Shown in pieces: positions 53,617-58,667 of a stretch of DNA of 64,000 nucleotides. The stretch lies in contig NZ_LR134378.1 of the NCBI RefSeq assembly GCF_900637555.1, positions 2,676,001 through 2,740,000 on the forward strand, written 5' to 3'. The position numbers and the translations under genes are program-made. The notes beneath the pieces are model-generated. The model saw nothing but the letters and a program-made list of their open reading frames with translations, had not been told where the DNA came from and did no database searches. Positions within the stretch are counted from its first letter, which is position 1; every line of letters starts with the position of its first letter. This DNA is from Lautropia mirabilis. GTDB lineage: Bacteria > Pseudomonadota > Gammaproteobacteria > Burkholderiales > Burkholderiaceae_E.

Positions 53617-53642
53617 GTAATGTAAACGAGAATTGCACTTAT
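53617..53642 (+). promoter_or_regulatory. Weak Fur-box-like sequence before the TonB receptor
   Basis: GTAATGTAAACGAGAATTGC, about 75-100 bp before the receptor start, is AT-rich and partly matches the Fur hexamer consensus. The match is weak; it is proposed mainly because such receptors are usually iron-regulated. Confidence 0.3.
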
Positions 53643-53716
53643 ACTTGGGCGCTGACACATTGTGCAGTCCATGCGGGCTGCCCTTGGCCATTCCACCCCG
53701 TTCCGACGCCCAAGAC

Positions 53717-55753
53717 ATGAAACTCCGTTCACACTGCGTCTCTCTCGGCCTGAAGGCCGTGCCGCTGGCGCTCATCAGCACCTTTGCGCACGCCCAGTCC
53801 GCCGCCCCCACCGAAACCCAGCTCCAGACCATCTACGCCATCGAAAAGGCGGCCTCCTCCACCGAGAAGGTCAACTTCAAGGCGCTGGAAGAAAGCACCG
53901 CCAATGAAATGAAGGAAGTGCTCTCGGCCGAGCCTTCCATCAACTTCGGCGGCGGCAACGGCACCTCGCAGTGGGTCACCATTCGCGGCATGGGTCAGGA
54001 CCAGATCGACATCAAGGTCGACAACACCTATTCCGACACGCAGATGTTCCACCATAACGGCCGCTTCCTGCTGGATCCGGCCCTCATCAAGGACATCGAA
54101 GTGCAGAAAGGCACCGGCTCGGCCTCGGCCGGCATTGGTGCCACCAGCGGCGCCATCGTGGCCCGCACCGCCTCGGCCAAGGACCTGCTGCGTCCCGGCC
54201 AGACCCTGGGCTTCAAGGTCAACGGCGGCTTCAGCAGCAACAAGGGCCGCGGTGCCGGCGTGGCCGCCTATGGCCAGTTCGGCGCACTGGATGCCCTCGT
54301 CAACGCCAACTGGACGAAGGAAGAGAACTACAAGTCCGGCGGCAGCGCCAAGCGCGAAGTGCAGAACAGCGCCCTGGGGCAGCGTGGCCTGCTGGCCAAG
54401 TTCGGCTATGCGCTGGACGAGCAGAACCGCATCGAACTGAGCCACCGCCAGGAAAAGACCCACGGCGTGCGCGCCCTGCGCGAAGAGTTCGACTTCTCGC
54501 AGGACAACAACGAGGCCAACAACGCCCCGCGCTACCGCATCTACACCCAGGACACCACCCGACTGGCCTACACCGGTCGCGGCCTGGGCCCGGTGGACAA
54601 GATCGAGACCGATGTCTACCGGATGAGCGCCGAAATGAAGAACTTCCCGCGAGCCGGCTCCGGTACCCTGCTGCTTGGCGCCAGTGAAGTGGAAACCCAG
54701 GGCGCCAACATCAACCTGGACAGCTACCTGTTCAACGAGCACATCCTGAAATACGGCGTGAACCTGCGCCGTCAGGAAGCCAAGCCCGGCTCCCGCCTGT
54801 CCACCAACGGCACGGCCGTCGACACCGTCAACGAGCGCAAGACCGACTACGGCGTCTATGCCGAAGGCATCTGGAACCTGCACCCCGTCACCCTCACCAC
54901 CGGCCTGCGCTACGACCACTTCAAGATGCGCACCTCCGGCCGCAGCGAAGTCTCCGACGGACAGATCAACCCCAGCATTGCCGCCATCTATGACCTGAAC
55001 GAACAGGTGTCGTTCAACGCCGGCCTGTCCTACGCCACCCGCAGCCCGCGCCTGTACGAAGCCATGCTGGCCGGCGGTCGCCGCGTCATTGCCGACAACA
55101 ACCTGGAAGCCGAACGCGCCCGCACCCTGGAAGCCGGCGTCACCTACACGCCCTCCCAGGCCCTGCGCCTGGCCGCCACCGTGTTCCACCAGAACACCAG
55201 GAACCACCAGGACTACCAGTGCATCAACGCGGCCGGCACCCCCTGCCAGGGTCGCCAGGCTGCCTCGTACTATCGCCTCTTCAACAGCGGCACGCTGAAG
55301 AACCACGGCTACGAACTGAGCGCCGCCTACGCCTTCGGCCACTGGACCACCCGCGCCGGCGTGGCCTACAGCAAGCCCAAGCTGGACGGCGAAGTGGCCG
55401 ACTCGACCAGCACCGCCATCCCCATCGGCCGTACCTGGACCACCGGCCTGGCCTACCAGCTGGAGAACCCAAACGTGGAAGTGGGCTGGCGCGGCCGCTT
55501 CGTGCAGAGCGCCGGCTACATCCCCAGCTCGCGCGGCTCATCCGCCACGCCCGAACTGGTTCGCCGCAGCGGCTACGGCGTCAACGACCTGTACGCCAAC
55601 TGGAAACCCTTCGGCACCGACGACCTGAACGTCAACTTCGCGGTCAACAACCTGTTCAACAAGTACTACAAGAGCCACAGCCAGCGCTCCGGCGTCTCCA
55701 GCCTGCCGGAACCCGGACGTGATGTCCGGCTGAATGTCAGCTATCGGTTCTGA
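53717..55753 (+). CDS. TonB-dependent outer-membrane receptor
   Basis: A 678-residue outer-membrane receptor. A signal peptide (to about 29, ending in FAHAQS) precedes a plug domain (about 50-165, with VTIRGMGQDQIDIKVDNT and VQKGTGSASAGIGATSG) and a 22-strand barrel ending in the insertion signal RLNVSYRF. SYATRSPRLYEAM and NNLEAERARTLEAGV correspond to the FRAP and NPNL regions of heme and siderophore receptors. The HH pair in MFHHNG and HQDYQC with nearby cysteines would suit heme binding, but the ligand is not proven. I chose the ATG at 53717 from the signal peptide. No TonB or ABC genes are adjacent. Confidence 0.9.
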   Translation: MKLRSHCVSLGLKAVPLALISTFAHAQSAAPTETQLQTIYAIEKAASSTEKVNFKALEESTANEMKEVLSAEPSINFGGGNGTSQWVTIRGMGQDQIDIKVDNTYSDTQMFHHNGRFLLDPALIKDIEVQKGTGSASAGIGATSGAIVARTASAKDLLRPGQTLGFKVNGGFSSNKGRGAGVAAYGQFGALDALVNANWTKEENYKSGGSAKREVQNSALGQRGLLAKFGYALDEQNRIELSHRQEKTHGVRALREEFDFSQDNNEANNAPRYRIYTQDTTRLAYTGRGLGPVDKIETDVYRMSAEMKNFPRAGSGTLLLGASEVETQGANINLDSYLFNEHILKYGVNLRRQEAKPGSRLSTNGTAVDTVNERKTDYGVYAEGIWNLHPVTLTTGLRYDHFKMRTSGRSEVSDGQINPSIAAIYDLNEQVSFNAGLSYATRSPRLYEAMLAGGRRVIADNNLEAERARTLEAGVTYTPSQALRLAATVFHQNTRNHQDYQCINAAGTPCQGRQAASYYRLFNSGTLKNHGYELSAAYAFGHWTTRAGVAYSKPKLDGEVADSTSTAIPIGRTWTTGLAYQLENPNVEVGWRGRFVQSAGYIPSSRGSSATPELVRRSGYGVNDLYANWKPFGTDDLNVNFAVNNLFNKYYKSHSQRSGVSSLPEPGRDVRLNVSYRF

Positions 55754-55794
55754 GGTGTTGTTCGATAGCTGAATGGATTGTCGTATGACATGAG

Positions 55795-55818
55795 AAAAAG
55801 CCCCTTCGGGGGCTTTTT
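55795..55818 (+). terminator. Terminator of the TonB receptor gene
   Basis: AAAAAGCCCC, loop TTCG and GGGGCTTTTT, a perfect 10-bp stem with a T-run, 42 bp after the stop. A decayed copy recurs at 56759-56785. Confidence 0.93.
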
Positions 55819-55906
55819 CTTTGCACAATCAGCAGGAAGACTCCATGAACCATGGAGATATCGGAACAACGGCTTGCGACCGACATGAACGGACGATGGA
55901 AACGTG

Positions 55907-56606
55907 ATGCCCAGAATAAGCAAAGCTGAGTTGATTGTGGCCATGATGCTGCTGAGCGTTTTGCTGGTCTTGCTGGGCAGTACGCTGGTTCTGAGCCTGT
56001 TCCAGCCCGTGCGCGAAGAAGCCGTGCACTTGGGATCCTCTGAACAAGTCCCCGCGGCCGTCGCATCCCCGTAACGGGCGCATGACTGCGTTACCATTTG
56101 CTGTCAATAGCGCCGCTATTGACAGCAAATGTCGCCTTGTCCTGCATCCCGTTCCGTGGCGCGTCGGTTCGCGGAACTTATTCAGAGGATCCCTTGAGCG
56201 GCAACATCAAATACACCCCGCCAACACGCCCTACCTTTTTCGGACTTGAGCATGACGGTCGGAGTTATTCCGTGAACACCCCCGTTTTCTTGACGAGAAC
56301 GGAAACAGGTTTCTCGACAACCATCACCCCGAAAAGATCATCAGCATTGAAGGCATCCGTCTTTACACACCATTGCATTACAAGGGCACTTTACAGCGCC
56401 TGGTGATAAGAAGGATTGAATTTCTGGAAGACGGGAAACAGCAAGTCGTTGTTGTTCCACCTGAAAAATTTTCCGTGGCATTGAGATATTGGCGAACTGA
56501 GACCTGGCTTGAACGTCTTTTCTGCTATGGCCTGTATCTGACCGCTTGCGGGTGGTTGTATGCGTTTTATCGGAAAGAGAACAGACGGGGGATCAAGAAG
56601 GAATGA
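55907..56606 (+). pseudogene. Membrane-protein gene split by an inverted-repeat element and frameshifted
   Basis: The first part (55907-56032) codes 42 residues with one strong membrane helix (LIVAMMLLSVLLVLLGSTLV). The 160-bp element at 56033-56192 then adds 13 foreign codons and a stop. If the element and one CTTG copy are removed, the frame continues directly from VHL into SGNIKYTPPTRPTFFGLEHD. Near 56262 a probable 1-base loss shifts the frame; the other frame then runs RSELFREHPRFLDENGNRFL to a second membrane segment (LFCYGLYLTACGWLYAFY) and a stop at 56606. The intact protein would have had about 180 residues. A 20-codon ORF at 55845-55907 with a good AGGAAG site precedes it and may be its real start region. 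I recognise no family. Confidence 0.7.
56029..56196. mobile_element. 160-bp MITE-like inverted-repeat element with CTTG target duplication
   Basis: The element (56033-56192) starts GGATCCTCTGAACAAGT and ends with ACTTATTCAGAGGATCC, near-perfect terminal inverted repeats. Its centre is a perfect 18-bp-arm palindrome (CATTTGCTGTCAATAGCG, C, CGCTATTGACAGCAAATG at 56096-56132). CTTG stands directly on both sides (56029-56032 and 56193-56196) as a 4-bp target duplication. No transposase is encoded, so a related insertion sequence elsewhere would have moved it. A 40-bp copy of its left end lies at 5639-5677. Confidence 0.8.
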
Positions 56607-56632: not shown

Positions 56633-56785
56633 CTGGAGAGCCGCAGCCAGCGATCCGGCGCCTCCGGGCTGACGGAACCGGGATGATGTCCGGAGGAATG
56701 TCAGCTATCGGTTCTTAGGTTTGGGTTGATAGCCTGTCTGGGTTGCAGCTTGAAATGAAGAAAGGCCCCTTGGGGGCCTATCCTT
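56633..56785 (+). pseudogene. Remnant of a second TonB receptor 3' end and its terminator
   Basis: This stretch aligns with 55668-55818. Shared blocks include AGAGCC-CAGCCAGCG, GATGTCCGG, GAATGTCAGCTATCGGTTCT, GATAGC and GCCCCTT-GGGGGC. Small indels break the receptor frame (SQRSGASGLTEPG and then a stop). The copied terminator (56759-56785) has lost its T-run. It shows that a duplicated receptor gene was once here and was mostly deleted. Confidence 0.75.
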
Positions 56786-56936
56786 TTGGGGTGCGCGCGC
56801 GTATGCCAGAAGCAACACCAACACAAAACCAACGAACCTAGCGCAAAATGCTCTTTCACCCCGGCAGAATCACTCATTCCGTCGAGGCCCATATAGAATT
56901 CCACCATCGAGACAACAGGAACACCAGGAGACCCCA

Positions 56937-58667
56937 GTGACAATCGAAAAATGCTTGATGGACATCTGCATCGAACTGACCCCCATCGACGCCAGCGCGC
57001 CGAAGTTCTTCGGGTTCTCAGAATTCCTGACCAGCCTTGCTCTCATGGTCCTGGCCTGGACGACCTCCGATGTTCGGTACCGGTTTCGGATTGATTGCGC
57101 TCCCATACCGCTAAAGGGCATCACATTCTGGGTTGTCGTTATCTTTGGAATGCTAACGCTTCTGACAGACCTCTGGCGCGCCGAACAATGGCTTGTTCCA
57201 ACAAACATCCCCCTGACAACTGGATGGTGGCAGGCGATCATGGGAGGAGCGCTTTTATTTACTTTTTTCTCATGGATATGGTTTGCCTTCATTCATCCGA
57301 AACCATACGGCAGATGGAACGCTGAGCGATTCACACAAGCACTTTACCAAGTCATTCTCAAAGGCTCGAAAGAAGAGCTATCCATAATCGCAGATGAACT
57401 AACAAAATCCATGAAGAGTATTGTCACCCACGCAACCGAAGAAAATAAACAAATAAACCAAGACACCCAAAACCCTCGAAAAGTACAACTCAGCGCAAAT
57501 AAAATACTGGAACTAATGGCTGATAAAATATTTTGCCGAGTAGTCGCCAATACCTCACCCACAACCGCAATAACCCTGTACAATGAAATGAAAAATAATA
57601 ATAAATACAATATAAAGGTTAAAAGTTTCACAAGAAACTTAATTAGCGAAGCTATTAACGAAAAATCATCTTTTATATGCCTAGAAATCAGCGAATATGA
57701 TTCAAAGCCAATGGGGCATAGAAATCCTATTAGTCGCATACTATTTTCTAACTACAAAATGTCGAGCGCAATAGGAACAACCCTCTGCCCGAATATAACA
57801 GATGTCTATAATTGGGATACGGATCAATGGAAGATCTACTTTCGAATCGTCCTGGTCACACTAAATAGCTACAACCCACAAGAACACGGAATCTATTCAG
57901 AGATATTAAAGAACGCACTAGATTATGCAAAACGATCGACAAGAGACTCCTACATTATCAACACAACTCCAGACATATCATACAACAATGATTATGCCAA
58001 GCGCATAATAATGGCCATCAATTTCACCCGAGAATTCATAAAGAAAATAAATGAAAAAGATGTCTATAAAAACATAAAGGTAAAAATAATTCGCGAAGAC
58101 CTTCCGCTTGAAGAGCAGTTAATTGCAAAAGAAAGCATTTACGACCATGTCGCAAGCCTGATGTTTGGCATCGTGATAGACATATCACAAATAACAAACC
58201 CCGCGTGGGAAGAACATATTTCTCACTCATTAATACCCCTCCTCGTGAACCACGATTTTCAAGTCACAGGTATCGAGAAAATCATACAAGCCAAATTTCG
58301 GAGAATGATATATAACGACATTAAGTCAATGGAAAAAACTCCAAATCAGAGAGCAGCCAGGGTAATTCGGCTTGTTTTAAATACAACAGGCTTAGAGACT
58401 ATTAAGAACAAGAGAAAACATGGAAGTTCAATTTTACAGAAAGCAGTTCTCGGATGGTTAAAGCGAAATTATGATTGGGTATATAGAAATAACCGAGAAA
58501 TCGCAAAGATCTGTCTTGGCAAAAACACATTCTACGACAGCATAAACCACAGAATCGTCAGAGGGTACGTTAGCCCCTCCAGAACGGGAAAGGAGTATGT
58601 CCATCTGGACATAGATCCAGCAGAGCCTCCCCTTGCATCTTCATCTCCAACACCAGCCGAGCACTGA
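56937..58667 (+). CDS. AT-rich gene for a 576-aa membrane-anchored protein of unknown function
   Basis: No family recognised. Three hydrophobic segments lie near the N-terminus (about 26-42, 61-79 and 95-117), followed by about 455 mostly hydrophilic residues rich in Ile, Lys and Asn, and a Pro/Ser tail (PAEPPLASSSPTPAEH). A membrane anchor with a large cytoplasmic domain is the simplest reading. AGGAGA at 56925-56930 favours the GTG at 56937 over the ATG at 56955. From about 57300 to 58560 the base and codon use (many AAA, ATA, AAT) is far from that of all neighbours, so the gene was acquired recently. It stands alone between a receptor remnant and an orphan antitoxin. A host-defence or phage-exclusion role is a guess from shape and context. 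Confidence 0.8.
   Translation: MTIEKCLMDICIELTPIDASAPKFFGFSEFLTSLALMVLAWTTSDVRYRFRIDCAPIPLKGITFWVVVIFGMLTLLTDLWRAEQWLVPTNIPLTTGWWQAIMGGALLFTFFSWIWFAFIHPKPYGRWNAERFTQALYQVILKGSKEELSIIADELTKSMKSIVTHATEENKQINQDTQNPRKVQLSANKILELMADKIFCRVVANTSPTTAITLYNEMKNNNKYNIKVKSFTRNLISEAINEKSSFICLEISEYDSKPMGHRNPISRILFSNYKMSSAIGTTLCPNITDVYNWDTDQWKIYFRIVLVTLNSYNPQEHGIYSEILKNALDYAKRSTRDSYIINTTPDISYNNDYAKRIIMAINFTREFIKKINEKDVYKNIKVKIIREDLPLEEQLIAKESIYDHVASLMFGIVIDISQITNPAWEEHISHSLIPLLVNHDFQVTGIEKIIQAKFRRMIYNDIKSMEKTPNQRAARVIRLVLNTTGLETIKNKRKHGSSILQKAVLGWLKRNYDWVYRNNREIAKICLGKNTFYDSINHRIVRGYVSPSRTGKEYVHLDIDPAEPPLASSSPTPAEH

What the first reader, a model, noticed from the sequence alone, without database searches (positions are those of the whole stretch)
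55907..56606. Gene split by a small inverted-repeat element; excising it restores the frame
Seen directly: a 160-bp element with near-perfect terminal repeats, an internal 37-bp palindrome and CTTG on both sides. Removing the element and one CTTG joins VHL to SGNIKY in frame, so the target was a real gene for a protein with a membrane helix near each end. A later 1-base shift near 56262 shows decay. The gene family is unknown to me.
Basis: partly seen in the sequence, partly recalled or inferred. Interest (0 to 1): 0.7.

Follow-up and report, generated by a model that had tools for sequence, protein, structure and literature searches.

The report
Miniature jumping element inside a gene
A 160-base stretch that moves by borrowing the enzyme of an ordinary jumping gene has landed in, and broken, a small gene of unknown family in a Lautropia bacterium; the event is ordinary, but the element's folded core turns up inside differently-ended small mobile elements across the order Burkholderiales.

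Summary
In detail: a 160-bp palindromic element (56033-56192) with near-perfect terminal repeats, an exact 18+1+18 internal palindrome (56095-56131) and CTTG on both sides splits an open reading frame. It is a non-autonomous element (MITE). The genome has eight copies at 94-100% identity, plus diverged, short and single-end relics. Many copies have exact 4-bp target duplications (CTTG, CTAG, TTAA, CCAG, CTGG, CAAG). One copy at a gene's stop codon is absent from six related genomes. The same 19-bp end bounds complete ~1.2-kb IS5-family insertion sequences in other bacteria, so an IS5-group transposase is the likely mover; none was detected in the genus. Closest described relative: MITEPsy1 of Pseudomonas syringae. 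The target frame is open on both sides, but its pieces have no homologue in Pfam, NCBIfam, plasmids, phages or the genomes searched, so 'a real gene' rests on frame continuity and weak coding signal. The later frame change is visible; whether it is decay or a sequencing error is not settled. Unexpected: the element's inner hairpin (CGTTGC, variable palindrome, CGCCTTG) recurs in 57 of 250 Burkholderiales genomes between unrelated terminal repeats, shows strong covariation and has no Rfam match.

The parts
56033..56192 (.). MITE, 160 bp, whole-length imperfect palindrome
56029..56032 (+). left copy of target duplication CTTG
56193..56196 (+). right copy of target duplication CTTG
56032..56049 (+). 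left terminal inverted repeat GGGATCCTCTGAACAAGT (first G shared with the duplication)
56176..56193 (-). right terminal inverted repeat GGGATCCTCTGAATAAGT
56095..56131 (.). central palindrome, 18+1+18
   Evidence: compensatory changes in related copies
56066..56160 (+). core hairpin module (CGGGCG..CTGCGTT - palindrome - TCGCCTTGTCCTGCATCCCG), shared with MITEs that have other ends; boundaries approximate
55907..56032 (+). 5' piece of interrupted reading frame, 42 codons, one hydrophobic helix
56197..56291 (+). middle piece of interrupted reading frame (SGNIKY...); its frame stays open to 56406
56256..56606 (+). 3' piece in the other frame (116-aa open frame; P0001 is 56292-56606), hydrophobic helix near its end

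Best explanation
[quoted passage not shown] The transposase recognises the ~18-bp ends (GGRNNCKCTGAAYAAGTC) and inserts the element into a YTNR-like 4-bp target, duplicating it; here the target was CTTG inside a reading frame, giving a net gain of 164 bp, a frame change and an early stop. Shown: repeat family, ends, duplications, an orthologous site without the element at another copy, and identical ends on full IS5 elements elsewhere. Inferred: that such a transposase moved this copy, that none of it remains in the genus, and that the hit frame was an expressed gene.
For: Eight copies at 94-100% identity in this genome plus further relics. Exact 4-bp duplications at many copies in both orientations: CTTG, CTAG, TTAA, CCAG, CTGG, CAAG. 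The copy at the stop codon of an acetyltransferase-like gene is absent at the same gene end in six Lautropia relatives. The same 19-bp end GGGATACTCTGAACAAGTC bounds ~1.2-kb elements whose transposase is 53-60% identical to L101's, in Dehalococcoidia, SAR202 and Rhodanobacteraceae genomes. L101/L103 hold a full element with ends GGAACCTCTGAACAAGTC and flanks CTAG or TTAG; its transposase is NCBIfam NF033581, IS5 family. IS5-type elements of Burkholderiales have GGAANNYCTGAACAAGTC-like ends next to YTAR. IS5's duplicated target is YTAR in PMC10359306. MITEPsy1 has similar ends and CTAG/YTAA duplications and moves in vivo (PMC3189936).
Against: No IS5-group transposase at E <= 1e-30 in any of nine Lautropia genomes; only one degraded DUF772 relic in this genome. 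CTTG is not strictly YTAR. A few copies have unequal flanks (L020 CTAG/CCAG, L139 CAAG/CTTG), so some have changed or recombined since insertion. Transposition itself was not observed.
Confidence: 0.9

Rival explanations
1. The hit frame was never a functional gene: the element landed in an AT-rich, partly open stretch of foreign DNA, and the fit of the two halves is chance plus local composition.
For: No homologue of any piece. The region is 48-55% G+C in a 65% window and lies between two diverged copies of a receptor-gene tail. Coding score of the 3' piece is below zero on the window's own codon usage.
Against: The 5' piece scores positive, and in each piece the proposed frame scores best of all six. 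A fixed frame of the 3' length stays open in only 0.2% of base-shuffled sequences. A hydrophobic helix lies near each end. Orphan genes in AT-rich islands score poorly on host codon usage anyway.
Confidence: 0.25
2. The 1-base shift near 56256-56300 is a sequencing or assembly error, so the only lesion is the element.
For: The overlap of the two frames contains short homopolymers (CCCCC, TTTT), a common site of indel error; nothing else in the 3' piece looks decayed.
Against: A gene already broken by an element is expected to decay; no reads or second strain were available.
Confidence: 0.35
3. The element is a structured RNA or DNA regulatory unit kept for function (terminator or processing site) rather than a mobile element.
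For: Very stable hairpin; compensatory changes across copies; several copies directly follow a stop codon; its core recurs across Burkholderiales.
Against: Target duplications, presence/absence at an orthologous site, both orientations, and IS5-type ends show mobility. Stop-codon placement follows from a YTAR-like target, which contains TAG/TAA. A palindromic transposon may keep complementarity by other routes.
Confidence: 0.1

Closest known systems
MITEPsy1 of Pseudomonas syringae pv. phaseolicola (PMC3189936)
   Same: 18-nt ends GGAAGGTCTGAAAAAGCC / GTATCCTCTGAAAAAGCC close to GGATCCTCTGAACAAGTC; 4-nt duplication of CTAG or YTAA; no coding sequence; attributed to IS5-family ISPsy2; reported to interrupt coding sequences
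   Different: 100 bp against 160 bp; a candidate autonomous partner (ISPsy2) is present in its host, whereas none was found in Lautropia; the CGTTGC/CGCCTTG core was not compared
IS5-group insertion sequences of the IS5 family (e.g. L101/L103, L203, L245)
   Same: same ends and target preference
   Different: about 1.2 kb with a transposase gene; interior unrelated to the MITE
MITEs with stem-loop transcripts in general (QMITE2, Correia/NEMIS; review PMC10969869)
   Same: short, palindromic, multi-copy, intergenic or intragenic
   Different: other ends and other targets (partly from memory)
REP palindromes of the GTAG/CGTC super-families (PMC3733652)
   Same: conserved imperfect hairpins spread through genomes, also as inverted pairs (compare L291, L292)
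   Different: 20-40 bp with an unpaired GTAG or CGTC tag; the core here is ~90 nt with invariant CGTTG and CGCCTTG on opposite arms and sits inside longer terminal repeats

Membership tests
MITE | short, non-coding, multi-copy element with terminal inverted repeats | tested here: met
   160 bp, eight near-identical copies plus relics
MITE | target-site duplication | tested here: met
   CTTG here; exact 4-bp duplications at many other copies, a few unequal
MITE | orthologous site without the element in relatives | tested here: met
   the L020 copy is absent in six Lautropia genomes at the same gene end; not testable for the window copy because the gene is absent from relatives
IS5-family (IS5 group) dependent MITE | ends shared with autonomous IS5 elements | tested here: met
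   19-bp end GGGATACTCTGAACAAGTC identical between Lautropia sp. (G007) MITEs and full IS5 elements; the window copy differs from it at one base (A/C)
IS5-family (IS5 group) dependent MITE | YTAR-type 4-bp target | tested here: inconclusive
   CTAG and TTAA occur, but CTTG is common among the copies and CCAG, CTGG, CAAG also occur
IS5-family (IS5 group) dependent MITE | autonomous partner in the same genome | tested here: not met
   none at E <= 1e-30 in nine Lautropia genomes; so the copies are either relics or moved by a partner since lost. Not strictly required of a MITE.
IS5-family (IS5 group) dependent MITE | mobilised by an IS5-group transposase | not testable with these tools
   needs a transposition assay
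REP element (GTAG/CGTC) | 20-40 bp palindrome with unpaired GTAG or CGTC tag | not tested
   no tag scan or RAYT association test was run; by size the 160-bp element does not fit
Known Rfam family | match to a curated covariance model | tested here: not met
   no match in the window element at gathering score or in 14 loci holding the core at E <= 0.1

The most novel reading that the evidence does not exclude
A structured DNA/RNA module of about 90 nt (invariant CGTTGC and CGCCTTG on the two arms around an exchangeable palindrome) is shared by MITEs of several unrelated end types across Burkholderiales. That would mean a common recognition or tolerance function travels between mobile elements independently of the transposase that moves them.
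Probability: 0.5. Interest if true: 0.65.

Novelty: new member of a known kind. Interest (0 to 1): 0.4.

Why it matters
For the finding itself: a new MITE family that places stable hairpins at stop codons and occasionally inside genes of a Lautropia bacterium, and a caution for gene calling in the window. More widely, if the core module is real, it is a conserved element found between end sequences of different types, which raises the testable question of what host factor or process selects it.

Tried and rejected
Autonomous partner in Lautropia: PF05598 and transposase searches gave only unrelated transposases or a relic. Homologues of the split gene: Pfam, NCBIfam, plasmids, phages, 200 relatives, 399 order genomes and a close-match scan of about 85,000 species, none. 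The weak G122 hit (E 0.006) was not pursued. Plasmid and phage copies of the element: none convincing. Rfam: nothing but a tRNA in the window, nothing for the core. Searching papers for the core motif letters returned only unrelated papers. Outside Burkholderiales most matches of the simple core pattern look like coding chance: the listed matches are mostly not hairpins, though a few genomes exceed their control (e.g. G599).

Full report
WHAT WAS CHECKED. The window is part of a 3.17-Mb single-contig genome. The described element is present as stated: CTTG 56029-56032, element 56033-56192, CTTG 56193-56196, internal palindrome 56095-56131. Its ends are not expected by chance anywhere in the window. 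It folds far better than shuffled sequence (z = -10).

THE ELEMENT IS A REPEAT FAMILY. The genome holds eight copies of 162 bp (with the shared flank bases) at 94-100% identity. It also holds a diverged 166-bp copy, 43-bp, 71-bp and 80-bp short forms, a copy cut to one end, and at least two more distant relatives. Relatives occur in other Lautropia genomes, with about 65 ends in G007, and in more distant Burkholderiales (G013, G097). Copies lie in both orientations. Many have exact 4-bp duplications: CTTG (the window, L008, L135, L141-L144, L146, L171 and others), CTAG (L023, L027, L009), TTAA (L002), CCAG (L014), CTGG (L015), CAAG (L158). One copy starts at the TAG stop codon of an acetyltransferase-like gene (named from its translated end, not from a database search). 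Six Lautropia relatives have the same gene end without the element, which shows gain or loss at an orthologous site. Several other copies also abut a stop codon, as expected of a target containing TAG/TAA.

WHAT MOVES IT. No autonomous relative was found in the genus: the transposase search was negative in nine Lautropia genomes at E <= 1e-30, and this genome has only a degraded DUF772 remnant. Elsewhere the link is direct. The sequence GGGATACTCTGAACAAGTC, identical to the ends of G007 copies and one base different from the window copy, bounds ~1.2-kb elements with an IS5-family transposase in Dehalococcoidia, SAR202 and Rhodanobacteraceae genomes. L101 and L103 carry a complete element with ends GGAACCTCTGAACAAGTC beside CTAG or TTAG; its transposase is NF033581, IS5 family. 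IS5-type elements of Burkholderiales show the same end type. IS5 is reported to duplicate YTAR (PMC10359306). The best described relative is MITEPsy1, with GTATCCTCTGAAAAAGCC ends and CTAG/YTAA duplications, which transposes in vivo (PMC3189936). So an IS5-group transposase acting in trans is the best explanation; the act itself is inferred.

THE INTERRUPTED FRAME. The frame from 55907 runs 42 codons to the left CTTG. The frame that begins after the right CTTG is the one in register with it, and it stays open to 56406. The remaining protein-like sequence, with a second hydrophobic helix, is in another frame open from 56256 to 56606. Thus a 1-base frame change lies between about 56256 and 56300; I did not place it or mend it. 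Codon-position composition favours the proposed frame in each piece over the other five, weakly in the middle and 3' pieces. The pieces were searched separately. There is no family match, no homologue in plasmids or phages, none convincing in 200 relatives or 399 order genomes, and none by a close-match scan of about 85,000 species. The gene is therefore an orphan or an unrecognised remnant. It sits in a low-G+C stretch between two diverged copies (79%) of the 3' end and terminator of the TonB-receptor gene, next to another orphan frame of 41% G+C.

THE CORE MODULE. Across 16 Lautropia copies the whole-length hairpin is kept by compensatory change: 12 pairs and 45 cells, with 0 of 500 shuffles reaching the covariation score. 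A covariance model of the element, built from Lautropia, G013, G097 and termite-gut Betaproteobacterium copies, matches 57 of 250 Burkholderiales genomes in 35 of 120 genera. Many matches cover only the inner ~92 positions. Read out, they are hairpins of the form GGGCG..CTGCGGCGTTGC - variable palindrome - GCGCCTTGCATCCxTCCCG. They lie between ends that do not resemble the IS5-type ends: AGAACCTGTTTAGCATC, AGAACCCATTTCATAAATAGG, AGGCGTCGAGAAACAATAACTTG, AGAGCCTGTTCAATATC, GGACTGTAACAGCC, GTGTCTAATTGCACAAGTC; or they have no such ends. On 22 cores, 20 of 25 predicted pairs have compensatory changes, while CGTTG and CGCCTTG stay nearly invariant. Rfam has no match. Caveats: the 22 were chosen by the model, so the shared motif is partly selected; the shortened calibration makes E-values rough; related sequences inflate pair counts. 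As a partial control, the plain pattern GCGTTGCN{22,50}GCGCCTTGC is far above its reversed control in some Burkholderiales genomes (G439 40 vs 0, G084 20 vs 0, G115 12 vs 0, G128 14 vs 1) but mostly near control outside the order.

VERDICT. The finding is real and is explained as a new MITE family of a known kind that hit an orphan reading frame. The frame fit is shown; that the frame was a functional gene, and that the shift is decay, are not. The core module shared between differently-ended elements is the part worth following up.

Noticed in passing
window ~56066-56160; L291, L266, L267, L268, L270, L271, L277: A hairpin core with invariant CGTTGC and CGCCTTG arms recurs in many Burkholderiales genomes inside MITEs with different terminal repeats, and as inverted pairs; no Rfam match.
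   Followed up: partly
window 55671-55822 and 56637-56786: 150-bp direct repeat (79% identity): the tail and terminator of the TonB-receptor gene 53633-55753 recur downstream of the split gene, perhaps the remnant of a second receptor gene.
   Followed up: partly
window 56937-58667: 576-aa open frame of 41% G+C in a 65% G+C window, without Pfam or NCBIfam match; a probable acquired orphan.
   Followed up: no
L020, L039, L023, L002, L016 and others: Several copies of the element abut a stop codon (TAG/TAA) that is part of the duplicated target, so insertion leaves the protein intact and puts a stable hairpin right after the gene.
   Followed up: partly
L021 1501-1543, L139 1309-1352, L160 335-378: 43-44-bp forms that are almost only two terminal repeats back to back; L160 has CTTG on both sides, the flanks of the other two are unequal.
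   Followed up: no
L291, L292 (G093): Two core hairpins head to head, 17 bp apart, between longer inverted ends (CTCGTAAATGAATAACTTG...): a larger composite element, repeated in the genome.
   Followed up: no
L196, L248 (Luteimonas sp. XNQY3): The same IS5-type ends enclose a different interior repeat (CGTCATTCCCGCGAA...GCGGGAATCCA).
   Followed up: no
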